Shown one piece after another: positions 3,470 to 22,869 of a DNA stretch of 23,339 bases. The notes beneath the pieces are model-generated. The model did no database searches. It was not told the origin of the DNA and worked only from the letters and a program-made list of their open reading frames with translations. Source of the stretch: a virus; IMG/VR virus record IMGVR_UViG_3300020552_000096, positions 1-23,339 of that record; one strand, written 5' to 3'. Position 1 is the first letter of the stretch. Each line of letters starts with the position of its first letter. The position numbers were made by a program, and so were the translations under genes.

Positions 3470-4300
3470 ATGAATATTATTTGGTCGGACTTTGATCCGA
3501 ATTCAGAATGGTCTGTGAAGCAGCGTGAAGCTAAAGCGGTAAACGGGTCAGATTATTGGCCAACGATGCGGGAAGTGTTCAAGCATGATTGTGCTACACT
3601 CCCGCTCAATCGTTTTCGTTTGTGGGCTAGTATCCACAACGTTCCTCTTGTAACACAGTACAGAACATCTCGTTTCTTTGGCGAAGCATTCTATCATGCT
3701 TATCGTGACGAAGAAATCTATAATGCTCTGCTAGAAAACTGGATTGGTATTCCAGAAGGTATGGCAGAAGCACTTCGCCCAACTAATGATTTTGATACAT
3801 CAACGCAGCGTATCCAGAACCTTGGTCATCTTATGATTACTGGGTTCGGTAAGGAGAAGCTACGTTCTATCAAGTCAATTGTTGAAATTGGTGCTGGCTA
3901 TGGTGACATGTGTTCACTAATCCACGACCTTGGTTTCGAGGGCGAATATACTATCGTTGATATTCCAGAGACTCAGCCAATTCAGGAATTCTATCTTGGT
4001 AAGCAGGGCATTACTCCAAAGTGGTCTTTCGAAGACGACAACGTCTCTCATGCTGATCTTGTAATTGCTACTTGGTCTCTATCAGAAACGCCACTCGAAT
4101 ATCGTGCGCAGCTAATGCCAAAGATCGACCAGTCAAAGAACTGGCTAATCATGGCACAGTCTGAAATCTTTGGACAGAAGGTAAATGACGAATATTTTAC
4201 TAACTTCTTCAAAGATAAGAACATGACAAAGATTCCACTTGGTTCAGAGCAGATGAAGCAGTGGGATGGTGATAACAATTATTATGTTGTGAGGGATTAA
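3470..4300 (+). CDS. Putative sugar O-methyltransferase
   Basis: 276 residues. The ATG at 3470 is favoured over an in-frame TTG at 3464 because GGAG at 3459-3462 is correctly spaced. The AdoMet-binding motif I is V-E-I-G-A-G-Y-G-D-M near residue 141, followed by the acidic strand end Y-T-I-V-D-I-P. The N-terminal third is helical and specific to the 'putative sugar O-methyltransferase' type. The gene opens a run of sugar-nucleotide genes and its stop overlaps the next start by one base, so methylation of a cassette-made sugar is a reasonable inference. The exact acceptor is not shown by the sequence. Confidence 0.72.
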   Translation: MNIIWSDFDPNSEWSVKQREAKAVNGSDYWPTMREVFKHDCATLPLNRFRLWASIHNVPLVTQYRTSRFFGEAFYHAYRDEEIYNALLENWIGIPEGMAEALRPTNDFDTSTQRIQNLGHLMITGFGKEKLRSIKSIVEIGAGYGDMCSLIHDLGFEGEYTIVDIPETQPIQEFYLGKQGITPKWSFEDDNVSHADLVIATWSLSETPLEYRAQLMPKIDQSKNWLIMAQSEIFGQKVNDEYFTNFFKDKNMTKIPLGSEQMKQWDGDNNYYVVRD

Positions 4301-4806
4301 TGCTTAACGTTCGTTCAACTTATCCTATGGCAGAACCTTGTTATAACCATGCAGAAAAGTGGCGTCCTAATAATGGTATTACATTCGGAACGTTTGATCT
4401 GATGCATGCTGGCCATGTTACAATGCTCGAGGTATGTCGAGCGCAGTGTGATCATCTAATCGTTGGGTTGCAGTCTGACCCAACGATCGACCGTCCAGAT
4501 ACAAAGAACAAGCCAGTTCAATCTCTTTTTGAAAGATATGCGCAGTTATCTGCTTGTCGGTTCGTAGACCAGATCATTCCCTACGACACAGAAGAGGATT
4601 TAGCAAATATGCTAAGTATCCTGGACGTTAAAAAGAGATTCCTTGGCGAAGAATATAAGGGACAATTCGTATATGCCGCTGATGTCTGCAGACAGCGAGA
4701 GATTGAAGTCGTATATATTGATCGCAAACACTATTATTCTTCATCAAATTTAAGAGGCAAAGTATATGCTAGAGAGTTGTCTAAACGCTCCAATAATCCA
4801 TCTTGA
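4300..4806 (+). CDS. Cytidylyltransferase-like nucleotidyltransferase
   Basis: 168 residues. The catalytic H-x-G-H motif is in G-T-F-D-L-M-H-A-G-H-V (residues 30-40), with a late S-S-S-N-L-R, as in TagD-type glycerol-3-phosphate cytidylyltransferases and the C-terminal half of HldE. These enzymes join a nucleotide to a sugar or polyol phosphate. In this setting it is the best candidate for activating heptose 1-phosphate made by the GmhA/HddA/GmhB set that follows, although the classical enzyme after HddA (HddC) has a different fold. The start overlaps the preceding stop (TAATG) and a GAGGG lies just before. An ATG at 4327 is an alternative start. Confidence 0.8.
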   Translation: MLNVRSTYPMAEPCYNHAEKWRPNNGITFGTFDLMHAGHVTMLEVCRAQCDHLIVGLQSDPTIDRPDTKNKPVQSLFERYAQLSACRFVDQIIPYDTEEDLANMLSILDVKKRFLGEEYKGQFVYAADVCRQREIEVVYIDRKHYYSSSNLRGKVYARELSKRSNNPS

Positions 4807-5320
4807 ATATTTCGCACAACAAGCTCAGAACCTTGATGGTTTGGTTCTAGAGTTTGGTGTAGCTACAGGCGGAACTATCAAAAGAATTGCATCAACATTA
4901 CCAGACAGAACTGTGTATGGATTTGATTGGTTCCAAGGTTTGCCAGAAGATTGGACTAACGGTTACAACGCTGGGCATTTTTCTTGTGAGAAACCATCAG
5001 ACCTACCAGAGAATGTAGTAATCGTAGAAGGTCTATTCAAGAAAACTGTTCCAGGATTTATCAAACAACACAAAGAAGAAAAAGTTGCATTCATGCATGT
5101 TGATTGCGATATCTATTCTTCTGCAAAATATGTTCTTGATAAGTTCGAAAAGAAGTTCCAAGATGGTTCTGTTATTGTCTTTGACGAATTTATCATATAT
5201 AATAATTATCAGCATCATGAATGGAAAGCATGGAATGAATTCTTAGAAAAGACTAAGTATAAGTATGAAGTGCTCGGTAGAGCTCATGCAGAAAGCGTGG
5301 CGTTTAGAATTTATAAGTGA
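4766..5320 (+). CDS. TylF/macrocin-type O-methyltransferase
   Basis: 184 residues, starting 41 nt inside the preceding gene with AGAGG ahead of the ATG. Motif I is V-L-E-F-G-V-A-T-G-G-T, followed by V-Y-G-F-D-W-F-Q-G-L-P. The metal-site region H-V-D-C-D-I-Y-S-S and V-F-D-E-F are as in the TylF family of sugar 3'-O-methyltransferases. Together with the other methyltransferase upstream, this suggests that the cassette product is O-methylated at more than one position, as known for heptoses in some bacterial capsules. Which sugar is used is inference. Confidence 0.78.
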   Translation: MLESCLNAPIIHLEYFAQQAQNLDGLVLEFGVATGGTIKRIASTLPDRTVYGFDWFQGLPEDWTNGYNAGHFSCEKPSDLPENVVIVEGLFKKTVPGFIKQHKEEKVAFMHVDCDIYSSAKYVLDKFEKKFQDGSVIVFDEFIIYNNYQHHEWKAWNEFLEKTKYKYEVLGRAHAESVAFRIYK

Positions 5321-5326
5321 GGCATA

Positions 5327-5911
5327 ATGACATTTAGTGATCAATATTTTAACGAAGTAGTAGACATCGCAAATGCAATCGATAAGAACAAAATTGATAA
5401 GCTGGCTAAAGCTGTTGCAGATGTCGGTGCGCATGCTGGTCGTGTGTTTGTTCTTGGCGTTGGTGGTAGCGCTGGCAACGCTTCCCATATGGTTAATGAT
5501 CTACGTAAACTATGCGGAATCGAATCATACTCTCCAACAGACAACGTGTCGGAACTTACCGCAAGGACTAACGATGAGGGCTTCGACACCATCTTTACAG
5601 AATACCTCAAAGTCAGCAATTTTTCTTCACGTGATGCGCTGTTCGTCTTATCAGTAGGCGGTGGTAATAAAGAGAAGAATGTATCAGTTGGTCTAGTTAA
5701 TGCCATTGATCTAGCAAAAGAATACGGTGCGAAGGTATTCGGTATTGTTGGTAAGAAAGATGGTTATGCTGCTAAGAATGGTGACATTGTTGTAGTTGTC
5801 CCGCAACTATCTCCTGATAGAGTTACTCCTCACTCCGAAGCATTCCAGGGCGTAGTCTGGCATTGCTTAGTTTCTAATCCTGTCCTACAGAAGAACAAAA
5901 CCAAATGGTAA
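5327..5911 (+). CDS. gmhA: Sedoheptulose-7-phosphate isomerase (GmhA-like SIS protein)
   Basis: 194 residues, the normal GmhA length. The SIS-domain phosphate loop is L-G-V-G-G-S-A-G-N-A-S-H, very close to GmhA G-x-G-G-S-A-x-x-A-x-H; the second site is L-S-V-G-G-G. The C-terminal helix T-P-H-S-E-A-F-Q-G-V-V-W-H holds the Glu and His positions that act in GmhA catalysis. The reaction converts sedoheptulose 7-phosphate to D-glycero-D-manno-heptose 7-phosphate. The gene overlaps gmhB by 7 nt and lies in one operon with a transaldolase that can make the substrate. GAGG lies before the start. Confidence 0.82.
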   Translation: MTFSDQYFNEVVDIANAIDKNKIDKLAKAVADVGAHAGRVFVLGVGGSAGNASHMVNDLRKLCGIESYSPTDNVSELTARTNDEGFDTIFTEYLKVSNFSSRDALFVLSVGGGNKEKNVSVGLVNAIDLAKEYGAKVFGIVGKKDGYAAKNGDIVVVVPQLSPDRVTPHSEAFQGVVWHCLVSNPVLQKNKTKW

Positions 5912-6447
5912 AAGCAGTATTCCTTGATCGTGATGGCACGCTCAACGAGCTAGTCCATGGTAGAGATAATCCAAAGCACGTTTGTCCTTGGTATTTCTCT
6001 GAGTTCAATTACATCAATGGTGTAGAGGAAGCAATTAAGGGATTGAGATCTCTTGGATTTTCTCTACACGTTGTGACCAATCAGCCAGACGTTGATGATG
6101 GATACACAACCGAAGAAACTATGAATGTCATTCATGATTGTTTAAAGAACGACTTAAAGGTTGATACAATTCAGGCAGCAAGAACACGTGGTACTGAAGA
6201 GTATAAACCTAATCCTGGTATGTTGAATAAGATCATCAAAGAATGGATGGTAAGTAAGGAACGTAGCTGGATGATTGGTGATACATGGCGTGACGTTGTT
6301 GCAGGAAATCGTGCTGGCGTCAAGACTATATACCTTGGTGATATATACAATGCGCCTCAAGAATATTTGCATATTACTCCAGATTTCTATGCCAAAAACC
6401 TTCTTGAAGCAGTAACAATTATTCAACAAAATGTAGGTGGACAATGA
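5905..6447 (+). CDS. gmhB: Heptose bisphosphate phosphatase (GmhB-like HAD)
   Basis: 180 residues, HAD subfamily IIIA. Motif I is F-L-D-R-D-G-T-L-N, motif II V-T-N-Q-P, motif III Lys in Y-K-P-N-P-G-M, and motif IV M-I-G-D-T-W-R-D-V-V-A-G, which is full catalytic equipment. The GmhB zinc loop (C-P-H...C-x-C-R-K-P) is not conserved: the corresponding segment reads A-A-R-T-R-G-T-E-E-Y-K-P-N-P with no Cys, so this is a zinc-less variant, as seen in related histidinol-phosphate phosphatases. In context it should remove the 7-phosphate from heptose 1,7-bisphosphate. It overlaps gmhA (7 nt) and the next gene (ATGA). Confidence 0.8.
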   Translation: MVKAVFLDRDGTLNELVHGRDNPKHVCPWYFSEFNYINGVEEAIKGLRSLGFSLHVVTNQPDVDDGYTTEETMNVIHDCLKNDLKVDTIQAARTRGTEEYKPNPGMLNKIIKEWMVSKERSWMIGDTWRDVVAGNRAGVKTIYLGDIYNAPQEYLHITPDFYAKNLLEAVTIIQQNVGGQ

Positions 6448-7184
6448 TTGAGATTTATGCAGACGGTGCAGACTTTGATGGTATTATGAAGGCTGCTGAG
6501 AATCCAAGAGTTACAGGATTTACTACTAACCCAACACTAATGAAGCAAGCTGGTATTACAGACTATGAATTATTCGCAAAGAATACAATTCGTTCTCTTG
6601 CTGAAAAGCGCCCAGGAACTAATATCTCTCTTGAAGTATTCGCTGACGATACAAATAATATGTATCTACAGGCAAAAAAGATTGCTTCGTGGGGAGCAGA
6701 ATGTAACTACGATGTGTTCGTAAAGATTCCAGTTATGAATACAAAGGGCGAACCAAATTATGGTTTAATTAGATTGCTTAACGAAGAAGGCGTAAAGGTA
6801 AACGTTACTGCGGTCTTTACTCCTAACCAAACTCACAATATTATAGAGAACATTACTAACCCAGATGTTCCCGTTATTATCTCTATTTTCTCTGGCCGTG
6901 TTGCTGATACTCTACGCAATCCTATTACTTGGACTAAGCAGTGTATTGGTGAATCAAACAACAAGCCAGCAGAGTTCGATAAGATTAAGTTCCTTTGGGC
7001 TTCTTGTAGAGAAATCTATCATCTGCAGATGGCAGAAGCTGCTGGTTGTGATATCATTACCATGCTTCATGATCAGATCAAGAAGTTAAACCTACAAGGT
7101 AAAGATCTAACAAAGTTTTCTCAGGAAACTGTTGAAATGTTTTATAATGATGCTGTTGCATCTGGATATAGGATTGAAGTATAA
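6444..7184 (+). CDS. Transaldolase
   Basis: 246 residues. T-T-N-P-T-L-M-K-Q-A-G-I near the N-terminus and V-K-I-P-V-M-N near the middle carry the transaldolase signatures; the Lys of V-K-I-P is the Schiff-base lysine. W-A-S-C-R-E-I-Y and G-C-D-I-I-T-M match the C-terminal barrel strands. The enzyme transfers a three-carbon unit from fructose 6-phosphate to erythrose 4-phosphate, producing sedoheptulose 7-phosphate. Cyanophages carry transaldolase to redirect the pentose phosphate pathway. Here its place between gmhB and a glycosyltransferase points to precursor supply for heptose synthesis. Start and stop overlap both neighbours (ATGA, TAATG). Confidence 0.88.
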   Translation: MIEIYADGADFDGIMKAAENPRVTGFTTNPTLMKQAGITDYELFAKNTIRSLAEKRPGTNISLEVFADDTNNMYLQAKKIASWGAECNYDVFVKIPVMNTKGEPNYGLIRLLNEEGVKVNVTAVFTPNQTHNIIENITNPDVPVIISIFSGRVADTLRNPITWTKQCIGESNNKPAEFDKIKFLWASCREIYHLQMAEAAGCDIITMLHDQIKKLNLQGKDLTKFSQETVEMFYNDAVASGYRIEV

Positions 7185-8185
7185 TGAAGGGGTTTGAAGA
7201 AAACGAAATTTCCGAAAAGGCGTTTGGTGGTACAGAGATTGCCAAGCGTAAGTTGGCAGAGATTCTACCAGAAGATTTGCTCGAGAATTTCCAGATTATC
7301 TGTTCACGTCCTCGTGATCTAGACGAAAGCAAGATTCGTTTATTCTGGTGTCATGATCTTCCAGAAGATCCAGAGTCTGCTAAGTTCCGTGACGCTAATT
7401 GGCGTTCTAAGTTTCATAAGTTTATCTTTATTTCTAACTGGCAGTATCAACGCTATCAGTTAGTGCATGGACTACCTTATGATCAGAATTCTCTAATTCT
7501 AGAATCAGGTATTGTTCCTGCTCCTGAAACTTGTTTTGATAAGCCAGACGACAAGATTCGTTTAGTATACACATCAACTCCACAACGTGGTCTTGATATT
7601 CTTGTTCATGTATTCAAGGAGCTAGCAGAGAAGCATCCAGATATTCACCTTGATGTATTCTCTTCGTTTAAGATTTATGGTTGGGATGATGCTGACAAGC
7701 AGTTCGAACCGTTGTACGACGAGATTCGTAATCATCCACAAATGACATATCATGGATTCGTTCCGAATGAACAACTCAAAGAGCACCTTAACAAGTCTCA
7801 TATCTTCGCTTACCCCTCTATTTGGACAGAGACATCCTGCCGAGCCATGCTCGAAGCTATGTCCGCTGGTTTGGTTTGTGTTCATCCTAATCTTGGCGCT
7901 CTACCGGAATCTTCCGGTGGGTTAAACGTAATGTTCCAGGGTGATCTTACTAACATTAATAATCATGCAGCTGCCTTTGCTGGTAATCTAAACGCTGCTA
8001 TTGATTTTGTTAGAACAAAGAACCACGACAAGATGATTCGCTTTAACAAAATCTTTGTTGACAGCCGTTACAATATCGATTATGTTAAGACTCGTTGGCA
8101 AGCAAATCTAGAAAAGCTACTTGCTCATTATCCCGACGAGGAATCAAGAAAGTTTCCAAAGGAAATGTTTACTTACAAGGCATAA
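7184..8185 (+). CDS. Glycosyltransferase (GT-B fold, GT4-like)
   Basis: 333 residues. The N-terminal half includes F-G-G-T-E-I-A, the usual glycine-rich acceptor-side loop; the second Rossmann domain starts at R-L-V-Y-T-S-T-P-Q-R-G-L-D-I-L. The donor-site E-x7-E motif is T-E-T-S-C-R-A-M-L-E-A-M-S-A-G. These features define a GT4-type retaining glycosyltransferase. It lies in the heptose cassette with one-base overlap to the transaldolase, so it probably uses the NDP-heptose (or its methylated form) as donor. The acceptor could be host envelope glycan, phage DNA or a virion protein, and cannot be decided here. Confidence 0.82.
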   Translation: MKGFEENEISEKAFGGTEIAKRKLAEILPEDLLENFQIICSRPRDLDESKIRLFWCHDLPEDPESAKFRDANWRSKFHKFIFISNWQYQRYQLVHGLPYDQNSLILESGIVPAPETCFDKPDDKIRLVYTSTPQRGLDILVHVFKELAEKHPDIHLDVFSSFKIYGWDDADKQFEPLYDEIRNHPQMTYHGFVPNEQLKEHLNKSHIFAYPSIWTETSCRAMLEAMSAGLVCVHPNLGALPESSGGLNVMFQGDLTNINNHAAAFAGNLNAAIDFVRTKNHDKMIRFNKIFVDSRYNIDYVKTRWQANLEKLLAHYPDEESRKFPKEMFTYKA

Positions 8186-8189
8186 TGAA

Positions 8190-9179
8190 ATGATTCTAAC
8201 AAAGACTCCGCTACGTGTATCGTTCTTTAGTGGAGGAAGTGATATGCCGTCCTTCTATGAACAGGAGGACGGCGCTGCTCTCTCCGTCACCATCAACAAA
8301 TTCATTTACGTATTTGCTCATAAGGTTCCACATATGGGAGTGCGTTGTATGTATGATGACGTTGAAGAGCAACATGATATCGAACAGATGCAGCATGCAA
8401 TCACTCGTGAGACTTTGAAGTATTATGACATCAAAAAGGAGATGACCGTTGCTTCAATATCTGATATTGTTACTAAGGGTTCTGGCCTTGGTAGCTCTTC
8501 TGCTTTTACAGTGGGTCTTGTTAAAGCATTATCTACCACAAAATACGATAACAGCACACGTAAATATGTTGCCGACATTGCATGTCAGATAGAAATGGAA
8601 AGGTGTGGCTATCCTGTTGGTAAGCAGGATCAGTACGCTGCAGCTTGGGGTGGGTTTAATCTATTCCGTTTCCGTAAGAATGGTGAAGTAGAAGTTGAAG
8701 AACTTAGACTAACCAATCCTAATGTAATGGCTCTTGAAAAGAATCTAATGCTTGTTTATTCTGGCAGAAGTAGAAATGCTAATAACATTCTACAGAAGCA
8801 ACAGAAGGCGATGCTAGATGCAGATAAGTTCAACAAGGTTAAACGATCAAAGGATAAAGCATTCGAAGCATTGAACTTAATCCACAAGGGAAAGATCGAT
8901 GACTTCGGTAGACTGTTACACGAGTCTTGGATTGATAAGAAGGGTGTCTGTGAAGAAATTACGCAGGACTATTTCGACGAGATCTATCAGACAGCTATAG
9001 ATGCAGGCGCTCTTGGTGGTAAGCTACTCGGTGCTGGTGGTGGAGGATTCTTTATCTTCTACGTTCCAGAAAAAAGTAGAACAAAGGTTGAGGGAGCGAT
9101 CTCTACCAAACACAAAGATTGTAGGATCTATGACTTCGAGTTCTACGGGTCTGGATCTCATATGGTCTATACTAATTAA
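8190..9179 (+). CDS. hddA: D-glycero-D-manno-heptose 7-phosphate kinase-like GHMP kinase
   Basis: 329 residues. The ATG at 8190 is preferred to an in-frame upstream start at 8121, which would overlap the previous gene by 65 nt; the sequence then opens M-I-L-T-K-T-P-L-R-V-S-F-F-S-G-G-S-D, the family's N-terminal motif. The ATP loop is K-G-S-G-L-G-S-S-S-A and motif 3 is G-A-G-G-G-G-F-F. HddA members phosphorylate heptose 7-phosphate at C1 to the alpha-1,7-bisphosphate. Galactokinase-like GHMP kinases are the alternative, but gmhA and gmhB in the same operon support HddA. The gene ends the cassette and is followed by a promoter-like sequence. Confidence 0.8.
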   Translation: MILTKTPLRVSFFSGGSDMPSFYEQEDGAALSVTINKFIYVFAHKVPHMGVRCMYDDVEEQHDIEQMQHAITRETLKYYDIKKEMTVASISDIVTKGSGLGSSSAFTVGLVKALSTTKYDNSTRKYVADIACQIEMERCGYPVGKQDQYAAAWGGFNLFRFRKNGEVEVEELRLTNPNVMALEKNLMLVYSGRSRNANNILQKQQKAMLDADKFNKVKRSKDKAFEALNLIHKGKIDDFGRLLHESWIDKKGVCEEITQDYFDEIYQTAIDAGALGGKLLGAGGGGFFIFYVPEKSRTKVEGAISTKHKDCRIYDFEFYGSGSHMVYTN

Positions 9180-15792: not shown

Positions 15793-16177
15793 CTTCGAGA
15801 GAGAATACTGTTCTCTTAATACCAAAGTGTTCGATCGCTTTCTGGCACCCCGGACAAGGTTCGGCCAGTCCACTTACCCACCCAGTGTCTCCCTTGTTTT
15901 GTTTCTTAACACGGTAGACATATAGGGTGGCATCTTTTAGATCATCTTCTTCGACAACTTTCAATGCTTTGATAATACAATCCACCTCTGCGTGTTTAAA
16001 GATCGCATCGATATTCTTTGCGAACCTTTTCTGCAGAGGATGGGATTTATCTGAGTTGAAACCGACAGAGATAATCTCGTTACGAAGAACGAGACACGCT
16101 GCCAGTTTCATCTTCATATTATTGGAAGTAGCTAGTCTACGGACAAAGTCCATATATTTCTTATCACGAGAACTCAT
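15767..16177 (-). CDS. Cytidine/deoxycytidylate deaminase-like protein
   Basis: 136 residues. The zinc site is complete: H-A-E-V-D-C-I-I-K-A and P-C-P-G-C-Q-K-A-I, i.e. H-A-E...P-C-x-x-C. The Glu of H-A-E is the proton shuttle of nucleotide deaminases. It is shorter than T4 dCMP deaminase (193 residues) and closer in size to bare cytidine-deaminase folds, so the substrate (dCMP, cytidine or another base) is open. In T4-like phages dCMP deaminase supplies dUMP for thymidylate synthesis. It overlaps the upstream sulfotransferase by 14 nt and ends the leftward operon that begins with the Ro-like gene. Confidence 0.78.
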   Translation of the reverse strand: MSSRDKKYMDFVRRLATSNNMKMKLAACLVLRNEIISVGFNSDKSHPLQKRFAKNIDAIFKHAEVDCIIKALKVVEEDDLKDATLYVYRVKKQNKGDTGWVSGLAEPCPGCQKAIEHFGIKRTVFSLEEENAYGSM

Positions 16178-16724
16178 CTGAGTATCCTAGATTACGAAAG
16201 TCTCGGGCGTAGATCTTTCGAACCATATCCACGCTTTCCGAATCATAATCATTATTATACTCTTCTTTTGAATAAGAGCCAACGTTTATTTTTGGTATAC
16301 GAATGTTTAGATCTACCTCGAGCTCCCAGAGCTCTTCGTATCTGTAGATCTTATCCATCTCTGTTATATCTTCTTCAAAGATATAAAAAGATTGATCGTA
16401 TTTCATAAGAGGAGTTTTCTCGGTAACTTCTCCTACCATAATCATGGACAAAAAGTTTTTAAAAGATATTTGTATTTGATTGAATCGCAAAAAATGATGA
16501 TAATAACTATACGCTCTTGTGAAGGGATTTCTTACGACAGAGAACTTGAAGACTTCTGGAGTAATGTTATTATTAAGTTTGAGAACATGATAAGGATCGT
16601 GACCGATATGCCATGTTCTTAACCATGGTTGTTCTCTAAGTTGAGACCTGATAGCGATGCCACCAGTCTTAGGTATATGAACAAAGAGAAGAGGGGGAAG
16701 ATCCCCCTCTACATTAGTAATCAT
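16164..16724 (-). CDS. Sulfotransferase-family protein
   Basis: 186 residues. F-V-H-I-P-K-T-G-G near residues 14-22 is the 5'-phosphosulfate loop, and S-V-V-R-N-P-F-T-R-A-Y-S is the 3'-phosphate binding motif, both as in the sulfotransferase_2 family that uses PAPS. The protein is somewhat shorter than most members. Its start overlaps the Ro-like gene by 11 nt and its end overlaps the deaminase gene. Sulfation of a phage-directed glycan (compare the sugar cassette) is possible. Nothing in the sequence links it directly to the RNA elements apart from shared transcription. Confidence 0.8.
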   Translation of the reverse strand: MITNVEGDLPPLLFVHIPKTGGIAIRSQLREQPWLRTWHIGHDPYHVLKLNNNITPEVFKFSVVRNPFTRAYSYYHHFLRFNQIQISFKNFLSMIMVGEVTEKTPLMKYDQSFYIFEEDITEMDKIYRYEELWELEVDLNIRIPKINVGSYSKEEYNNDYDSESVDMVRKIYARDFRNLGYSDEFS

Positions 16725-18138
16725 AACGCTCGTTCATGATAGTGTCGAGCATAATCGATTCGGGAGTAAAGGTCTCTACGTTAGCCAAACCCTTCACCAG
16801 TGCTGGCGAGAATCCAGAAACAAGAGCAACTCCAGAAGTATCATACTTCACAGGCTGATTACCATACGCAGCATTTAGATTCCAGAACACGATCTTTGGT
16901 AGATCATAACCAGCATCCTGATACTTACGAGCAATCATCTGTAATGCGCTATCGTCGAAACGAGTGCACTGGTTGAACTGCATGTCTGATAGAATAAGCA
17001 GCATGTCAGGCATTTCTTCCTGAGGCACATTACCCTTCTTAGCTACATCAAGAACCTTATCCAGAGCACGGTGCAGATCAGTAGACATAGCCCACTTAGA
17101 CTGAACCATCTGCTGGCACTTCTGAACGATATTACCGTTTAGGTGCAGCAACTGTGGGTTGTCGCTGAAAGTCAAGAAGGTATCCTTGAACGCTCCAGTG
17201 TTCTTGTCTGCAAGATACAGACCAAGAGACACAGCAACGTCAATGCAAGTAGTACCACTCTTTGAGTTGTATCCACCAGCAGGAGTGGTCATTGAACCAG
17301 AAACGTCAACCAAAGGTAGGATACGGGCATCCCCAACGAAGTTAGGAAGAGCATCCCACTGAGCCTGAAGATGTCCAAGTTCAGTGGCATCATAGTCGTT
17401 TGACCAACGATATGAACATAGACCCTTTAGAACATCGTAAGGATACACAGCACCAGCGTTCACCTTTACGCCAGCTTCGCCCTTTACGAGCTTCTGAACA
17501 TACTCAGCAAACTTTACAGAGTGCTTGTTGAATGCCTTCTTGTAACGAGAAGCAGCAAGAGAAGGAACCTTGTTGTAGTCGATCTCTTCCCACTGCTTTG
17601 CGCACATCTGAGTTTCAACAACGTTGGTTAGATTAACCAAAGTCTTACGATACTGCTTTGGAGTCATACCAAGGAATGCACGTAGCTCTGCAGCCACTTC
17701 ACCCTTACGAGGCATCCACTTAGCAACTAGACCAGCAGTATTCTGGTTAGACAATCCTTCACGGATAAACTCGAACGCTTCCTTACGGACATCGCCCTTT
17801 GCAGTTAGGAGATCATCCCAACGACCAAGTTCCGGAACCTTATGCACGATACGAGCAGCAAGTGCAGGATCGTTGTCGCATAGGTACTGGAAAATATCAC
17901 GGAAGATCTTACGTTCACCAGATCCACCACGAGCATCACGTGCCCATAGAGCAATACGAGTTGCAAGTTCCTTGTTGGTAACATATGCAGCTACGAAAGC
18001 AGGGATGATATCCTTACCACGAGAAGCACCAATGTTGAAGTATAGATCAACTAGCGGAGACGCAGTTGACTTCAGAGCCTTCATACCATTTTCAGTACGT
18101 GCTTCCTGATTCTTCACGGCATTAACAAAAGTAGACAT
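16714..18138 (-). CDS. Ro60/TROVE-like protein with vWA domain (DUF2828-type)
   Basis: 474 residues. The first ~265 residues form an alpha-helical repeat region with the landmarks S-P-L-V-D-L-Y-F (27-34), W-A-R-D-A-R-G-G-S-G-E-R (65-76), E-L-G-R-W-D-D-L-L (103-111), V-V-E-T-Q-M-C-A-K-Q-W-E-E-I-D-Y-N-K-V-P-S (about 173-193) and Y-P-Y-D-V-L, the pattern I associate with DUF2828, a relative of the Ro60/TROVE fold. A vWA domain follows with a full MIDAS: D278-V-S-G-S282, Thr353 in M-S-T-D, and Asp385 in L-I-L-S-D-M. Ro60 binds Y RNAs and misfolded RNAs on its helical ring. Seven structured RNA elements end only 19 nt upstream on the same strand. AAGGAAAG precedes the ATG. Direct RNA binding by this family is an inference. 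Confidence 0.85.
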   Translation of the reverse strand: MSTFVNAVKNQEARTENGMKALKSTASPLVDLYFNIGASRGKDIIPAFVAAYVTNKELATRIALWARDARGGSGERKIFRDIFQYLCDNDPALAARIVHKVPELGRWDDLLTAKGDVRKEAFEFIREGLSNQNTAGLVAKWMPRKGEVAAELRAFLGMTPKQYRKTLVNLTNVVETQMCAKQWEEIDYNKVPSLAASRYKKAFNKHSVKFAEYVQKLVKGEAGVKVNAGAVYPYDVLKGLCSYRWSNDYDATELGHLQAQWDALPNFVGDARILPLVDVSGSMTTPAGGYNSKSGTTCIDVAVSLGLYLADKNTGAFKDTFLTFSDNPQLLHLNGNIVQKCQQMVQSKWAMSTDLHRALDKVLDVAKKGNVPQEEMPDMLLILSDMQFNQCTRFDDSALQMIARKYQDAGYDLPKIVFWNLNAAYGNQPVKYDTSGVALVSGFSPALVKGLANVETFTPESIMLDTIMNERYDY

Positions 18139-18156
18139 TTCACTTTCCTTTTCTAC

Positions 18157-18215
18157 AGATTGAACTTTGAGTCAAATTATCAGTTTGATTTTCATTGGAT
18201 TGCTGAACTCAATCT
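18157..18215 (-). ncRNA. Y RNA-like element A (anticodon-arm type, GAU loop)
   Basis: 59 nt, directly before the Ro-like gene. The terminal helix is AGATTGA / TCAATCT (7 bp); read leftward, the 5' strand is followed by the family motif GTTCAGCAA and the 3' strand is preceded by AAGT. Inside, 18172-18188 forms a perfect 5-bp stem with a 7-nt loop, TCAAA-CTGATAA-TTTGA. The loop has U33 and A37 at tRNA positions and equals the usual anticodon loop of tRNA-Ile(GAU). Its terminal helix differs from the other copies yet stays paired, which supports an RNA. The strand is set by the tRNA-like members of the same array. Confidence 0.7.
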
Positions 18216-18224
18216 AAAATTAAC

Positions 18225-18333
18225 AGGATAGATTTTACGTGCTCTACCGACTGAGCTACTCCCCCATAGGGAAGGTGGGGCTCGAACCCACGACCACGGC
18301 TGTGTAAAAGCAAAACATTGCGGAAACTATCCT
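18225..18333 (-). ncRNA. Y RNA-like element B (circularly permuted tRNA mimic, YrlA-like)
   Basis: 109 nt. The terminal helix is AGGATAG / CTATCCT. Read leftward, the core has: hairpin GCAA-TGTT-TTGC; stem TTTTAC/GTAAAA at the place of an anticodon stem; a canonical T-arm GTGGG-TTCGAGC-CCCAC (18275-18291); a 7-bp acceptor stem CTTCCCT/GGGGGAG capped by only 2 nt (18259-18274); TA; and a canonical D-arm GCTC-AGTCGGTA-GAGC (18241-18256). The 3' half of a tRNA thus precedes its 5' half. There is no CCA, so it cannot be a normal tRNA. This layout agrees with YrlA-type bacterial Y RNAs, whose tRNA-like module is joined to a Ro-binding stem. It lies about 10 nt after the predicted start of an internal promoter. 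Confidence 0.82.
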
Positions 18334-18349
18334 AAAACTCTATATTACT

Positions 18350-18377
18350 ATTATACTACACTTTGCTTAGAAGTCAA
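18350..18377 (-). promoter_or_regulatory. Internal promoter of the RNA array and Ro-like gene
   Basis: On the minus strand, TTGACT (18377-18372), a 16-nt spacer and perfect TATAAT (18355-18350) lie in the only long gap (55 nt) of the RNA array, between elements C and B. Transcription should start near 18343, about 10 nt before element B, and continue through B, A and the Ro-like gene. A perfect 7-bp inverted repeat (TTTGCTT-N7-AAGCAAA, 18362-18382) covers the -35 and may be an operator. The same TTGACT-16-TATAAT layout occurs at 20170-20197. Confidence 0.78.
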
Positions 18378-18388
18378 GCAAAAATAAC

Positions 18389-18454
18389 AGGATAACATCT
18401 TTCTTCGATTACAAGTCGAGTGCTTATTCAGCGATGGTTTGCTGTAGTTATCCT
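18389..18454 (-). ncRNA. Y RNA-like element C (anticodon-arm type, UGU loop)
   Basis: 66 nt with an 8-bp terminal helix AGGATAAC / GTTATCCT. The 5' strand is followed by TACAGCAAACC, the family motif. An inner hairpin at 18405-18419 is TCGA-CTTGTAA-TCGA, 4 bp with a 7-nt loop. This loop is the same as the anticodon loop of the tRNA-Thr(UGU) encoded 1 kb away (19381-19456), with U33 and purine 37 in place; the fifth stem pair would be C-A. Nine nt separate it from element D. No T- or D-arm is visible. Independent folding or decoy roles are inference. Confidence 0.68.
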
Positions 18455-18463
18455 AGAACTAAC

Positions 18464-18514
18464 GGGATCAACTTGGCTTGTTTGTGAGCAACAGTTGAAT
18501 GCTGAACTGATCCC
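18464..18514 (-). ncRNA. Y RNA-like element D (shortest member)
   Basis: 51 nt with terminal helix GGGATCA / TGATCCC and the family motifs GTTCAGCA on the 5' side and AAGT before the 3' strand. The inner part is less clearly folded: either TGTT-GCTCACA-AACA (4 bp, 7-nt loop lacking U33) or a bulged GCT/AGC stem. The first pair of the terminal helix is G-C here but A-T in most other copies, a compensatory difference. Its ends and flanks match its neighbours, so it belongs to the family although it lacks a good anticodon-like loop. Confidence 0.65.
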
Positions 18515-18529
18515 AAAACTTTATACAAC

Positions 18530-18636
18530 AGGATATATTTTTTAGCTCCATGGCTATTAACCACGATAGGATTTGAACCTATTATCTTCTGTAATAATAC
18601 AGATGCTTCGACCGAAGTGTTTGCTGAAAATATCCT
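18530..18636 (-). ncRNA. Y RNA-like element E (permuted tRNA mimic with extra hairpins)
   Basis: 107 nt with terminal helix AGGATAT / ATATCCT and motif TTTCAGCAA. Read leftward: hairpin CTTC-GGTC-GAAG (18606-18617); hairpin TCTGT-ATTATT-ACAGA (18588-18603); canonical T-arm ATAGG-TTCAAAT-CCTAT (18566-18582); 7-bp acceptor-like stem CGTGGTT/AGCCATG with two G-U pairs, capped by AAT (18549-18565); then GAGCT, a D-arm remnant, and an A-rich stretch. As in element B, the tRNA 3' half comes before the 5' acceptor strand and no CCA is present. T-arm and acceptor are directly stacked as in a real tRNA elbow, while the D-arm is almost lost. Confidence 0.75.
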
Positions 18637-18646
18637 AAAACTAAAC

Positions 18647-18847
18647 TGGATGGTTGAAGGAATTTTTATTATTGTTCTGGAGAGACCGATTAACTCGTAC
18701 GAGTATATCCTTCAACTCTCCCTATCTAATGATTCTCACTAGCAATATTTTCTCTCACCGTAGTGGAGAAACTCTCTGAACAGTAAGAACCAAAGTTCTT
18801 ACATCGGAGGAGCCTTACGACTCCGAGTGGTTTGCTGTATCCATCCA
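18647..18847 (-). ncRNA. Y RNA-like element F (large multi-helix member)
   Basis: 201 nt, about twice the other long members. The terminal helix is TGGATGG / CCATCCA, with the motif ATACAGCAA on its 5' side read leftward. Inside are several strong helices: TTGAAGGA (18654-18661) with TCCTTCAA (18708-18715) enclosing palindrome ACTCGTACGAGT (18693-18704); TTCTC-CAC/GTG-GAGAA (18750-18770); TAAGAAC-CAAA-GTTCTTA (18784-18801); and CGGAG/CTCCG (18805-18825). No T- or D-arm consensus is visible and there is no useful ORF. It is an elaborated member of the family, with an interior of unknown purpose. Confidence 0.65.
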
Positions 18848-18856
18848 CAATAAAAC

Positions 18857-18911
18857 AGGATCAACTTGCATTTTTCGTTCAAAGAAAAGTAGTTATTGCT
18901 GAACTGATCCT
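18857..18911 (-). ncRNA. Y RNA-like element G (anticodon-arm type, UGA loop)
   Basis: 55 nt, the first element of the array in the direction of transcription, only 6 nt after the encoded CCA of tRNA-Gly. The terminal helix is AGGATCA / TGATCCT with motifs GTTCAGCAA and GCAAGT. The inner hairpin at 18872-18888 is TTTTC-TTTGAAC-GAAAA: exactly 5 bp and a 7-nt loop with U33 and A37, so the anticodon position would read UGA (Ser). The short spacing to tRNA-Gly suggests a joint precursor cut by tRNA-processing enzymes. Confidence 0.68.
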
Positions 18912-18917
18912 AAAATT

Positions 18918-18992
18918 TGGAGCGGGCGACCAGAATCGAACTGGCGACCAACAGTTTGGAAGACTGTGACTCTACCCCTGAGTTACACCCGC
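18918..18992 (-). tRNA. tRNA-Gly(TCC)
   Basis: The full cloverleaf is visible: acceptor GCGGGTG / CGCCCGC, D-arm, anticodon arm ACAGT-CTTCCAA-ACTGT with anticodon TCC, T-arm CCAGTTCGATTCTGG, and encoded TCCA at the 3' end. Its 5' end overlaps the last 10 nt of the DUF2061-like gene, whose stop lies inside it. It leads directly into the Y RNA-like array. Confidence 0.95.
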
Positions 18993-19304: not shown

Positions 19305-19379
19305 TGGATCAGGAACCTGGACTCGAACCAAGATTAACGGAGTCAGAGTCCGTGGTTTTACCGATTAAACTATTCCTGA
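19305..19379 (-). tRNA. tRNA-Gln(CTG)
   Basis: Acceptor TCAGGAA / TTCCTGA, D-arm GTTT-AATCGGTA-AAAC, anticodon arm ACGGA-CTCTGAC-TCCGT (anticodon CTG), T-arm with GGTTCGAGTCC, and encoded TCCA. Position 1 is T, as usual for tRNA-Gln. The Thr gene ends 1 nt upstream on the same strand. Confidence 0.93.
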
Positions 19380-19380
19380 A

Positions 19381-19456
19381 TGGTGCTGGCAGAAGGAATC
19401 GAACCCTCGACCTGATGCTTACAAGGCAACTGCTCTACCGTCTGAGCTATACCAGC
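19381..19456 (-). tRNA. tRNA-Thr(TGT)
   Basis: Acceptor GCTGGTA / TGCCAGC, D-arm GCTC-AGACGGTA-GAGC, anticodon loop CTTGTAA (anticodon TGT), T-arm GAGGG-TTCGATT-CCTTC, and encoded ACCA. One anticodon-stem pair is T-T. The same 7-nt anticodon loop recurs in RNA element C of the array. Confidence 0.94.
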
Positions 19457-21718: not shown

Positions 21719-21793
21719 TGGCTCCCTGAGAAGGATTCGAACCTCCGGCCAAGTCGTTAACAGCGACCTGCTCTACCACTGAGCTACCAGGGA
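21719..21793 (-). tRNA. tRNA-Asn(GTT)
   Basis: Acceptor TCCCTGG / TCAGGGA, D-arm GCTC-AGTGGTA-GAGC, anticodon arm GGTCG-CTGTTAA-CGACT (anticodon GTT), T-arm GGAGG-TTCGAAT-CCTTC, and encoded GCCA. It begins 4 nt after the stop of the unknown gene at 21798. Confidence 0.95.
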
Positions 21794-21797
21794 ATAT

Positions 21798-22532
21798 TCA
21801 TTCTAAGAGATTATCTAAAACCTCTTCCATAAACTGTTTTCTAAGTTTTGATTTTCTAAACAAGTCATAATAATATTCTAAAGGACTAATCAAAGGATAT
21901 TTATTATTTCTTGCAGACAAATTTCGTTGCATCAAATGTAAAATTTTCTCTGATGGATAGAACTTTACCAGTTCTACATTTTCATCGGTCATAAACTTTA
22001 CATTAAGATAAGGATCTCCACGTTTTAAAGTTACCTCATTATATCCGTTCCTCACGAAAAAGGCAAACTCTATGTTTCTAATCCATTCATATATATTAAA
22101 CTGTCCTGGCATACCAATGGTTGTTTTACCAAACTCGGTATCGCCGAGATACGTAGGAGTCGTCTGAATCTCTACGCTTTGTTCTGGAATAAACCAATAG
22201 TATAAATTAAGAGAGATCAATCTCTCTTTTGCCATTCTAACTCTAACAACATCATCAAAAAATTTCTGATCATACATATCAGAATAGACATCGCCATCGT
22301 CAGTAAATTTTAAAGTGTAATCAATAGGAAATCTTAACTCATACGAATTATGAATTCTTCTTTTCATACTAGGACAATACTTAAAATTGTCCAACGGTTT
22401 TAGATCGTTCGAAGGTAATTTATTAAACAGTTCCGAAGTTTTCATCGGTTCGTAATAATTCAAAAACTGGAGCGAATGATTATCACTCTCATTTACATTG
22501 AATGTATTTACTGCTGTCCAATAAACTTTCAT
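21798..22532 (-). CDS. Unknown phage protein
   Basis: 244 residues from ATG. No signal peptide, membrane span or catalytic motif was seen. It is rich in Tyr, Asn and Phe, with Y-L-G-D-T-E-F-G-K-T-T-I-G-M-P-G-Q-F-N-I-Y-E-W-I-R as the most motif-like stretch, followed by a basic helix S-K-L-R-K-Q-F-M-E-E. Segments such as 'W-F-I-P-E-Q-S' and 'L-Y-Y-W' give it a distinctive character, and I would expect relatives only in T4-like phages. It lies between tRNA-His and tRNA-Asn. Confidence 0.58.
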   Translation of the reverse strand: MKVYWTAVNTFNVNESDNHSLQFLNYYEPMKTSELFNKLPSNDLKPLDNFKYCPSMKRRIHNSYELRFPIDYTLKFTDDGDVYSDMYDQKFFDDVVRVRMAKERLISLNLYYWFIPEQSVEIQTTPTYLGDTEFGKTTIGMPGQFNIYEWIRNIEFAFFVRNGYNEVTLKRGDPYLNVKFMTDENVELVKFYPSEKILHLMQRNLSARNNKYPLISPLEYYYDLFRKSKLRKQFMEEVLDNLLE

Positions 22533-22543
22533 AACAACCTCAA

Positions 22544-22617
22544 TGGTACTGGGACCAGGTATCGATCCTGAACTACAAGCTCCACAAACTCGTGTGCTAC
22601 CACTACACTATCCCAGC
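22544..22617 (-). tRNA. tRNA-His(GTG)
   Basis: Acceptor GCTGGGA / TCCCAGT, D-arm GTGT-AGTGGTA-GCAC, anticodon arm CGAGT-TTGTGGA-GCTTG (anticodon GTG), T-stem TCAGG/CCTGG, and encoded ACCA. Position 73 is A and no G-1:C73 pair can form, the state known from alphaproteobacterial tRNA-His. The T-loop starts with A instead of T54, which is unusual. Confidence 0.85.
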
Positions 22618-22621
22618 AAAC

Positions 22622-22696
22622 TGGATCGGGGACAAGGACTCGAACCCTGATAGACAGAACCAAAATCTGCCGTTCTACCAATTAAACTATCCCCGA
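22622..22696 (-). tRNA. tRNA-Gln(TTG)
   Basis: Acceptor TCGGGGA / TCCCCGA, D-arm GTTT-AATTGGTA-GAAC, anticodon arm GCAGA-TTTTGGT-TCTGT (anticodon TTG), T-arm AGGGTTCGAGTCCTT, and encoded TCCA. With the CTG isoacceptor at 19305 the phage covers both Gln codons. Confidence 0.93.
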
Positions 22697-22703
22697 ACAA
22701 AAA

Positions 22704-22787
22704 TGGTGCCGAGAGTAGGGTTCGAACCTACCGTGCTATAAGCGTCCGATTTACAGTCGGGTGCCCGTCCACTCAGGCGGTCTCGGC
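22704..22787 (-). tRNA. tRNA-Tyr(GTA), type II
   Basis: 84 nt with a long variable arm. Acceptor GCCGAGA / TCTCGGC, D-stem GCCT/GGGC, anticodon arm CCGA-CTGTAAA-TCGG (anticodon GTA), T-arm GTAGG-TTCGAAC-CCTAC, and encoded ACCA. Positions 8-9 read CC rather than the usual T8, a small oddity. Confidence 0.92.
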
Positions 22788-22792
22788 ATTAA

Positions 22793-22869
22793 TGGAGTCC
22801 CGAACAGGATTCAAACCTGTAGCCTTCGGTTTCGTAGACCGATGCTCTATTCAGTTGAGCTATCGAGAC
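22793..22869 (-). tRNA. tRNA-Arg(ACG)
   Basis: Acceptor GTCTCGA / TCGGGAC, D-arm GCTC-AACTGAATA-GAGC, anticodon arm TCGGT-CTACGAA-ACCGA (anticodon ACG, expected to need A34-to-inosine editing by host TadA), T-arm ACAGG-TTTGAAT-CCTGT, and encoded TCCA. Its 5' 23 nt overlap the end of the metallophosphoesterase gene. Confidence 0.94.

What the first reader, a model, noticed from the sequence alone, without database searches (positions are those of the whole stretch)
16714..18911. Array of seven Y RNA-like elements beside a phage Ro60/TROVE-like gene
Seven elements (18157-18215, 18225-18333, 18389-18454, 18464-18514, 18530-18636, 18647-18847, 18857-18911) share a plan: 7-8 bp terminal helix, conserved 5'-side motif N-T-W-C-M-G-C-A, in most AAGT or AAAT before the 3' strand, and flanks AGTTTT / GTT. 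Terminal helix strands differ among copies (AGATTGA, AGGATAG, AGGATAAC, GGGATCA, AGGATAT, TGGATGG, AGGATCA) but each has its exact complement, i.e. compensatory change showing selection on RNA pairing. The next gene on the strand encodes a DUF2828/TROVE-like vWA protein. Single Y RNAs are known in bacteria and some phages; a diversified tandem family with a DUF2828-type partner is not known to me. The protein may sort, store or present these RNAs; function is inference.
Basis: partly seen in the sequence, partly recalled or inferred. Interest (0 to 1): 0.95.

Follow-up and report, generated by a model that had tools for sequence, protein, structure and literature searches.

The report
Phage Y-RNA array displaying tRNA pieces
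Next to its gene for a Ro60-like RNA-binding protein, this phage carries a row of small RNA genes that share one handle but show different interiors, several of them tRNA parts such as anticodon loops, and the same arrangement occurs in many other phages.

Summary
Seven minus-strand elements lie directly upstream of a DUF2828/DUF7788 gene whose predicted fold is Ro60 (Z 19.5). They share a 7-bp terminal helix and a CAGCA-type motif always starting 10 nt from the helix start. In 76 related loci, 211 of 715 CAGCA sites have a perfect 7-nt complement in exactly that register; other offsets give 3-36, the opposite strand 6 of 559. Two helix pairs not used for selection are both Watson-Crick in 68 of 79 elements, 9% when shuffled. 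In seven phage genomes and one viral contig the elements are 46 times denser beside the gene than elsewhere.

New here: many interiors are tRNA parts. Element 2 resembles YrlA, a permuted tRNA. Short elements carry anticodon-arm mimics: 27 of 79, shuffled 0.95; 7 of 12 loops compared equal natural anticodon loops from the same loci.

Best reading: a phage Ro60/Y-RNA RNP whose interchangeable RNAs present tRNA pieces to tRNA-recognising proteins. Binding and function are inferred. Phage Ro60 and Y RNAs were known; I found no report of the shared handle, the arrays or the anticodon-arm interiors. New variant of a known kind.

The parts
16714..18138 (-). Ro60-fold protein gene (474 aa; Pfam DUF2828 + DUF7788; PHROG 850 'RNA-binding protein'); N-terminal helical domain plus vWA domain with DVSGSM motif
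18157..18215 (-). Element 1 (59 nt): handle plus anticodon-arm mimic at 18172-18188 (TCAAA-CTGATAA-TTTGA, GAU-type loop); lies 18 nt before the start codon
18225..18333 (-). Element 2 (109 nt): handle (CCGCA variant) plus YrlA-type permuted tRNA module; Rfam YrlA match at 18235-18299
18350..18377 (-). Promoter-like TTGACT-16-TATAAT (11 of 12) between elements 3 and 2; such matches in the region are no more frequent than in shuffles
18389..18454 (-). Element 3 (66 nt): handle (8 bp) plus 4-bp hairpin at 18405-18419 with loop CTTGTAA, the same loop as the window's own tRNA-Thr(UGU)
18464..18514 (-). Element 4 (51 nt): handle; interior not clearly an anticodon arm
18530..18636 (-). Element 5 (107 nt): handle plus T-arm and closed acceptor-like hairpin
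18647..18847 (-). Element 6 (201 nt): handle plus large multi-helix interior
18857..18911 (-). Element 7 (55 nt): handle plus hairpin at 18872-18888 (TTTTC-TTTGAAC-GAAAA), anticodon-arm-like by shape; this loop was not found among the natural tRNAs compared
18918..18992 (-). tRNA-Gly (tcc), immediately upstream of the array; further tRNAs at 19305-19456 and 21719-22869

Best explanation
The locus encodes a phage Ro60/Y-RNA ribonucleoprotein. The DUF2828 protein has the Ro60 fold. Each of the seven RNAs carries the same Ro-binding handle: a 7-bp end helix, a KUWCAGCA-type strand facing an A-rich strand, and in most cases GUU after the helix. Each RNA presents a different interior. Several interiors are pieces of tRNA: a lone anticodon arm (elements 1 and 3, perhaps 7), a T-arm with a closed acceptor-like stem (element 5), or a permuted T-acceptor-D body as in bacterial YrlA (element 2). 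The RNAs are probably made and trimmed with the neighbouring tRNAs, are bound through the handle, and hold a set of tRNA surfaces on the outside of the Ro ring. There they occupy or recruit proteins that recognise tRNA, most likely nucleases or repair and modification enzymes met during infection. Shown by computation: predicted fold, handle, covariation, linkage to the gene, tRNA-like interiors. Inferred: binding, processing, and the effect on tRNA-recognising proteins. My estimates: Ro/Y-type RNP about 0.85; tRNA display about 0.8; decoy for tRNA-cleaving defence about 0.35; tether or gate for a nuclease, as D. radiodurans Y RNA does with PNPase, about 0.3.
For: Fold: AlphaFold2 model pLDDT 78, pTM 0.73; Foldseek hits 9kop, 2i91, 1yvp, 2nvo and 1yvr at E 4.8e-10 to 6.4e-7; VIA Z 19.5 over 387 residues to Ro60 1yvr, Z 16.0 to Ro60 of Thermus phage phiLo (9l5y), against at most 9.0 for the chains listed that share only the vWA domain. 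Handle register. Covariation without selecting on pairing: each free pair Watson-Crick in 91-92% (28% shuffled), both in 68 of 79 (mean 9%, maximum 20% in 500 shuffles). The helix stops at 7 bp: position 8 pairs in 14%. Linkage: 24 strict elements in 59.6 kb beside the gene on its strand against 17 in 1.96 Mb elsewhere, seven named phage genomes and one viral contig. 74 of 78 related viral loci have at least one element; 237 of 257 lie upstream of the gene (two of the 80 loci fetched, copies of the window's virus, were left out). YrlA match to element 2 and to elements of Enterococcus and Mycobacterium phages. Anticodon arms: 5-bp stem plus exactly 7-nt loop in 43 of 79 short elements (shuffled 10.2, max 14), of tRNA form YUNNNRH in 27 of 79 (shuffled 0.95, max 4); after removing similar interiors 20 of 41 (5.1, max 9) and 11 of 41 (0.52, max 3). 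Seven of the 12 loops compared are identical to anticodon loops of tRNAs in the same loci. Nine of 28 T-arm elements carry a 5-bp anticodon-type hairpin 4-6 nt before the T-arm, about the tRNA variable-loop spacing (no shuffle control was run for this).
Against: No binding or expression data for this virus. Element 2 is below the Rfam YrlA gathering score, and no other element of the window matches YrlA at E 1. No Pfam TROVE match and no Ro60 match in the PDB by sequence. Six of 17 named phages with the gene have no perfect-helix element within 3 kb: KVP40, Ochrobactrum OC, Serratia BF, Synechococcus B23, Citrobacter Ci1, Vibrio 1.081 (B23 has three with one wobble pair near the gene). Three more have one only, which may be chance, and the two of phiM7 are doubtful: one is 35 nt long and neither is followed by GT. 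Four of 78 viral loci have none; two of them, L102 and L103, have 4 kb of upstream sequence. The YrlA search also rings on other tRNA-like sequence: 9 of 14 control genomes, none over the cut-off, and several of the places in 16 of 23 records lie far from the gene; two of the 16 are the same virus. 39 of 79 short elements show no anticodon-arm hairpin, and the 130-260 nt interiors are mostly not recognisable tRNA.
Confidence: 0.8

Rival explanations
1. Decoy function: the RNP is a sponge that offers anticodon arms and tRNA bodies to tRNA-cleaving host defences, protecting real tRNAs. A specific version of the best explanation.
For: Seven of 12 loops equal natural anticodon loops; elements nearest the gene differ in anticodon between relatives (GAU in this virus, UGA in L093 and L096, GCA in L094, CAU in L099); phages are reported to use tRNAs against retron-Eco7 and PrrC (PMC11555353, abstract); YrlA as a competitive inhibitor of an anticodon nuclease was proposed in PMC7790460 (passages).
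Against: No nuclease is named by the data; the anticodons are mixed, not one known target; PMC7790460 (passages) reports that fragments of YrlA were not detected, so it was not a substrate of the nuclease studied there.
Confidence: 0.35
2. Tether or gate function: the RNAs attach the Ro ring to a host nuclease such as PNPase and redirect it to structured RNA, as reported for D. radiodurans Rsr, Y RNA and PNPase.
For: Ro60 fold; YrlA-type module in element 2; the known mechanism as described in PMC4726728 and PMC8394870 (passages).
Against: Many elements have only an anticodon arm or a non-tRNA interior; several different effectors per genome are hard to explain with one nuclease.
Confidence: 0.3
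3. The elements are processing or folding signals, or decayed tRNA genes, of the tRNA cluster, unrelated to the Ro60-like protein.
For: They lie in the tRNA cluster and many contain tRNA parts.
Against: Handle with strict register and covariation; 46-fold linkage to the gene; none fitting the whole plan in the stretches scanned of T4 (8 kb; no DUF2828 match in T4) and T5 (25 kb).
Confidence: 0.08
4. The terminal helices are chance inverted repeats in AT-rich spacer, or recombination sites.
For: Short helices are common in AT-rich DNA.
Against: Register and opposite-strand controls; fixed strand relative to the gene; no recombinase among the 20 window proteins scanned with Pfam (not all ORFs were scanned).
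Confidence: 0.01

Closest known systems
Bacterial Y RNA YrlA (Rfam RF02553) with Rsr
   Same: RNA closed by a helix of its two ends, beside a Ro60-fold gene; element 2 has the same T-acceptor-D permuted tRNA module
   Different: Below gathering score; the Rfam lower stem reads cggCga-AUGC..ucGccg with no CAGCA at that place; seven elements in an array; interiors other than YrlA, including anticodon arms
Vertebrate Y RNA / Ro60
   Same: Ro60 fold of the protein; Ro60 site described as a 7-bp helix followed by bulges (PMC4726728, passages)
   Different: Conserved bases not compared in detail here; vertebrates have four Y RNA clades, to which bacterial Y RNAs are described as not homologous (same passages)
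Ro60 of Thermus phage phiLo (PDB 9l5y; 9kop, titled 'Trove domain', gives the like match)
   Same: Phage protein of the same fold (Z 16.0 and 18.2)
   Different: 17-18% identity; not matched at E 1 by the profile of 33 relatives; its RNAs were not examined here
Listeria phage CKA15: CKA15_055 and highly transcribed non-coding regions (PMC12282133)
   Same: DUF2828-family gene with three handle elements just upstream, at 25290-25552 of the identical stretch; authors suggested Y RNAs
   Different: The region they give with coordinates, 26236-26727, is not the element array and shows no element on the plan; no handle or anticodon arms are named in the passages I read
Phage tRNA genes used against tRNA-cleaving defences
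   Same: Phage RNA presenting tRNA features from a tRNA cluster (PMC11555353, abstract)
   Different: Those are whole tRNAs; these are permuted or partial tRNAs on a presumed protein-binding handle

Membership tests
Ro60/Rsr proteins | Ring of helical repeats closed by a vWA domain | tested here: met
   Predicted model: Z 19.5 over 387 residues to 1yvr, 11.6 to D. radiodurans Rsr 2nvo
Ro60/Rsr proteins | Pfam TROVE domain by sequence | tested here: not met
   Only DUF2828, DUF7788 and a weak VWA match at E up to 10; hence filed as Ro60-fold, not as a member of the TROVE sequence family
Ro60/Rsr proteins | Metal-site (MIDAS) residues in the vWA domain | tested here: met
   D278-x-S280-G-S282, T353 and D385 invariant in 33 proteins; assignment to MIDAS is recalled
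Ro60/Rsr proteins | Binds Y RNA on its outer surface | not testable with these tools
   -
Bacterial Y RNA (YrlA, RF02553) | Rfam gathering score of 69 bits | tested here: not met
   42 bits for element 2, no match up to E 1 for the other six
Bacterial Y RNA (YrlA, RF02553) | tRNA-like T, acceptor and D arms in permuted order | tested here: met
   Element 2 only; element 5 has a T-arm and acceptor-like hairpin; not seen in the other five
Bacterial Y RNA (YrlA, RF02553) | Stem of 5' and 3' ends that binds Rsr | tested here: inconclusive
   Stem present and covarying; binding untested, conserved bases differ from YrlA
Bacterial Y RNA (YrlA, RF02553) | Gene beside a Ro60 homologue | tested here: met
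   with the Ro60 fold
Vertebrate Y RNA Ro60 site | 7-bp helix | tested here: met
   Helix ends at 7 bp
Vertebrate Y RNA Ro60 site | Bulged C and 3-nt bulge on the opposite strand | tested here: inconclusive
   A conserved KUWCAGCA strand facing an A-rich strand follows the helix; its detailed pairing is unknown
tRNA | Cloverleaf recognised by ARAGORN | tested here: not met
   None of the seven elements called in the window; 3 of 203 element sequences (196 related, 7 of the window) called when scanned alone

The most novel reading that the evidence does not exclude
Large phages of several families keep a library of interchangeable RNAs on a common Ro60 handle. It displays the anticodon arms and bodies of tRNAs, partly as circularly permuted tRNAs, so that the Ro60-like protein can blunt or sense host nucleases that attack tRNA. 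The repertoire of anticodons changes from virus to virus.
Probability: 0.3. Interest if true: 0.95.

Novelty: new variant of a known kind. Interest (0 to 1): 0.82.

Why it matters
A homologue of this gene is found in 672 of 50,697 phage records. Eight of the 17 named phages read have two or more perfect-helix elements within 3 kb of it, one of the eight (phiM7) doubtful; hosts of the others include E. coli, M. smegmatis, Listeria, Staphylococcus, Enterococcus and Campylobacter. The handle gives a simple rule for finding the RNAs, some of which databases may list as 'tRNA-OTHER' (not tested). Anticodon-arm interiors turn the open question of what phage Ro60 and Y RNAs do into direct tests with tRNA-cleaving defences and tRNA-binding proteins.

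Tried and rejected
Chance inverted repeats: rejected by the register and opposite-strand controls. Whole tRNAs missed by ARAGORN: rejected, 3 of 203 element sequences score as tRNA. T4 and T5 stable RNAs of unknown function (T4 RNA C and D; T5 RNAs I, III, IV and others): the stretches of the tRNA clusters holding them (T4 68000-76000, T5 21000-46000) were scanned. With a G required after the helix T4 gives none on either strand. Without it T4 gives one plus-strand hit and T5 four hits, none with an AGGAT-type strand and a following GTT. Bacterial relatives: one genome scan with the single protein confirmed none; that scan reaches close relatives only. The published most-read region of CKA15 as a handle element: no element on the plan in 26236-26727. 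Sequence-level link to Ro60 in the PDB: none. The VIA list does not exclude other folds that it lacks.

Papers: PMC12282133 passages and one whole section; PMC7824862, PMC7765460, PMC11208441, PMC7790460, PMC8394870, PMC8628891 and PMC4726728 passages only; PMC11555353 outline and abstract. The primary Y-RNA papers and reviews (PMC4201824, PMC6047535, PMC6281776, PMC10870794) are not held and were not read, so part of this may be described there. Searches bearing on novelty. Several list only part of what they found (30 of 40 papers; 15 of 38; 30 of 185; 10 of 49; 10 of 2,915; 12 of 65). In one search the term for phage phiLo also matched 'philosophical', so that list says little.


Full report
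WHAT IS THERE. The window is the whole of a 23,339-base IMG/VR record, probably a fragment; a 146.6-kb contig carries the same protein at 100% identity. On the minus strand a run of tRNA genes ends with tRNA-Gly at 18918-18992. Then come elements 7, 6, 5, 4, 3, 2 and 1, and the 474-aa gene starting at 18138, 18 nt after element 1. No listed ORF of 60 aa or more covers the array. The wording on flanks needs small corrections: GTT follows 6 of 7, TTTT precedes 5 of 7, and AAGT/AAAT stands before the 3' strand in 5 of 7.

CHANCE AND COVARIATION. I took all CAGCA sites outside the gene (within 3 kb of it; in the whole locus) and asked how often a 7-mer at each offset has its exact complement downstream. 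In 24 loci (7 viral contigs, 17 named phages), 50 of 179 sites do so at offset -10, against 0-14 at the other 36 offsets, and 3 of 162 on the opposite strand. In 76 further loci, some of them close copies of one another, the figures are 211 of 715, 3-36 (36 being offset -9, where 8-bp helices also count), and 6 of 559. To avoid selecting on pairing, I chose 5' halves and 3' halves by consensus alone and tested the two helix positions that the patterns leave free. 197 5' sites gave 79 distinct pairs of halves; the rest had no 3' pattern in range or were duplicates. Both free pairs are Watson-Crick in 68 of 79, against 9% on average in 500 shuffles (maximum 20%), with all four pair types present. 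Of 215 distinct elements with flanks, 19 without a following G were dropped; from the other 196 the consensus is TTTT-AGGATNN-KTWCAGCAA ... AAA-N-NNATCCT-GTT. The helix stops at 7 bp. CAGCA and the following G were part of the selection; KTW, TTTT and TT were not.

LINKAGE. Of 80 related viral loci fetched, two copies of the window's virus were left out. The other 78 hold 257 elements by the perfect-helix rule: 74 have at least one, 237 elements are upstream, and 177 of those lie within 1 kb. In seven named phage genomes and one viral contig the strict plan occurs 24 times in 59.6 kb beside the gene on its strand and 17 times in the remaining 1.96 Mb of both strands, 46-fold denser; three of the 17 are neighbours of the Milchi cluster just outside the 3-kb limit. 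Two or more perfect-helix elements lie within 3 kb in Synechococcus phage BUCT-ZZ01, Listeria cka18, E. coli EC6, Mycobacterium LeBron, Campylobacter NCTC12673, Sinorhizobium phiM7, Staphylococcus S-CoN_Ph1 and Enterococcus GVEsP-1 (8 of 17; 11 of 17 have at least one). The two of phiM7 are doubtful (one 35 nt long, neither followed by GT), and single ones may be chance. Six of 17 have none in that range: KVP40, Ochrobactrum OC, Serratia BF, Synechococcus B23, Citrobacter Ci1 and Vibrio 1.081. T4, which has no DUF2828 match, shows no element on the plan in the 8 kb round its tRNA cluster, nor does T5 in 25 kb. Two clusters are a thin negative control.

THE PROTEIN. Pfam gives DUF2828 and DUF7788 and no TROVE, even at E 10; PHROG 850 is named RNA-binding protein. 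An AlphaFold2 model from 33 proteins of this window and related viral loci (pLDDT 78, pTM 0.73) matches Ro60 over most of its length: Z 19.5 to 1yvr, 18.2 and 16.0 to 9kop and 9l5y (the latter is titled Ro60 dimer from Thermus phage phiLo), 11.6 to D. radiodurans Rsr, and at most 9.0 to the listed chains that share only the vWA domain. Some depositors already call relatives 'Ro-like RNA binding protein' or 'Ro sixty-related'. The Ro60 nature of the family is therefore not new.

THE INTERIORS. Element 2 matches Rfam YrlA at 42 bits, E 2.3e-6, below the gathering score; the same holds for elements in Enterococcus and Mycobacterium phages. YrlA matches in 16 of 23 records are weaker support: 9 of 14 control genomes ring too, several places lie far from the gene, and two of the 16 records are one virus. 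The Rfam lower stem has no CAGCA at the corresponding place. Of 196 elements, 79 are under 80 nt, none of them with a T-loop or D-loop by the patterns used. Among these, a 5-bp stem with exactly 7 loop bases occurs in 43, against 10.2 (maximum 14) in 30 dinucleotide shuffles; loop 9 is also raised (18 against 8.9, maximum 15) and the other lengths from 3 to 12 stay within the range of the shuffles. The tRNA anticodon-loop form YUNNNRH occurs in 27 of 79 against 0.95 (maximum 4 in 200 shuffles), and in 11 of 41 against 0.52 (maximum 3) after removing similar interiors. I compared 12 distinct loops, taken by hand, with the anticodon loops of 806 tRNAs that ARAGORN finds in the same and related loci (some loci overlap, so some tRNAs count twice): 7 are identical to a natural loop and 5 are not, while 103 of 768 possible loops of that form are natural. 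Loops with A in the first position, seen, were not in this comparison. With a looser pattern 40 of 79 short elements show such a hairpin and 39 do not. In the window, element 1 has CTGATAA on 5 bp, element 3 has CTTGTAA on 4 bp (the loop of the window's own tRNA-Thr), and element 7 has TTTGAAC on 5 bp, not a natural loop here. Elements nearest the gene differ in anticodon between relatives. Of 42 distinct elements of 80-130 nt, 28 have a T-arm, 13 an anticodon-type hairpin 0-9 nt before it, and 9 of these with 5 bp and a spacing of 4-6 nt; L134 at 3861 shows anticodon arm, T-arm, closed acceptor and D-arm in that order, a whole tRNA circularly permuted (no shuffle control). Elements of 130-260 nt are large multi-helix RNAs, mostly without tRNA marks.

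EXPRESSION. In Listeria phage cka15, identical to cka18 over this stretch, three elements lie at 25290-25552, in the unannotated gap between CKA15_055 and CKA15_056. The published study reports three very highly transcribed non-coding regions within 2 kb upstream of CKA15_055, one at 26236-26727, mentions promoters of two unannotated regions near tRNA genes, and suggests Y RNAs; it also found CKA15_055 in purified particles with 20 peptides (PMC12282133). By elimination the element array is probably one of those regions, but the text I read gives no coordinates for the other two. The TTGAC-18-TATCAT just before the array does not quite fit their TATAMT motif. In the window a promoter-like TTGACT-16-TATAAT lies between elements 3 and 2, but such matches are as frequent in shuffles (5 against 4.7).

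HOW IT MOST LIKELY WORKS. The fixed handle and the free interior fit one protein holding many RNAs, as Ro60 holds Y RNAs: a 7-bp helix with bulges is also how the vertebrate Ro60 site is described (PMC4726728, passages). That many interiors are tRNA pieces points to proteins that read tRNA. Decoy for tRNA-cleaving defence and tether for a nuclease are the two leading functions; I cannot separate them. RNA-repair genes lie near the gene in some phages (a tRNA splicing ligase in cka15; an RNA ligase in Serratia BF), which fits either.

VERDICT. Phage Ro60 and phage Y RNAs are known, so this is a new variant of a known kind. The shared handle, the arrays and above all the anticodon-arm and permuted-tRNA interiors are what I could not find in print (searches: several of them capped lists; the primary Y-RNA papers were not available to read).

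Noticed in passing
window 4300-9179: Sugar-nucleotide block: cytidylyltransferase-like, SIS-domain, HAD-hydrolase and GHMP-kinase genes with a transaldolase and a glycosyltransferase; the set looks like a phage-borne heptose-nucleotide pathway (inference).
   Followed up: partly
window 16164-16724: Sulfotransferase-like protein gene directly after the Ro60-like gene (Pfam Sulfotransfer_2, PHROG galactose-3-O-sulfotransferase).
   Followed up: no
L020 6489-6980 (cka15 26236-26727): The region of phage CKA15 with the highest read counts (two ORFs in it were reported to take about 67% of phage transcripts at 40 min, PMC12282133) is a roughly 490-nt probably non-coding stretch without the handle: an unexplained abundant phage RNA near the array.
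   Followed up: partly
L020 8001-9521 (CKA15_055): The Ro60-like protein was reported in purified CKA15 particles (20 peptides, PMC12282133): it may travel with the virion.
   Followed up: no
L018 7026-7138, L028 9866-9975, L029 10012-10125, L033 12125-13994: 'tRNA-OTHER' annotations near Ro60-like genes may be permuted-tRNA Y RNAs.
   Followed up: no
elements of 130-260 nt, for example L104 3766, L106 3549, L109 3481; and L106 3742, L111 1531, L113 2336: At least two recurrent classes of large multi-helix interior on the same handle, unrelated by eye to tRNA.
   Followed up: no
L026 6319-7578; L034 1-365: RNA ligase gene one small gene upstream of the Ro60-like gene in Serratia phage BF, and a tRNA splicing ligase gene near it in Listeria phage cka15.
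   Followed up: no
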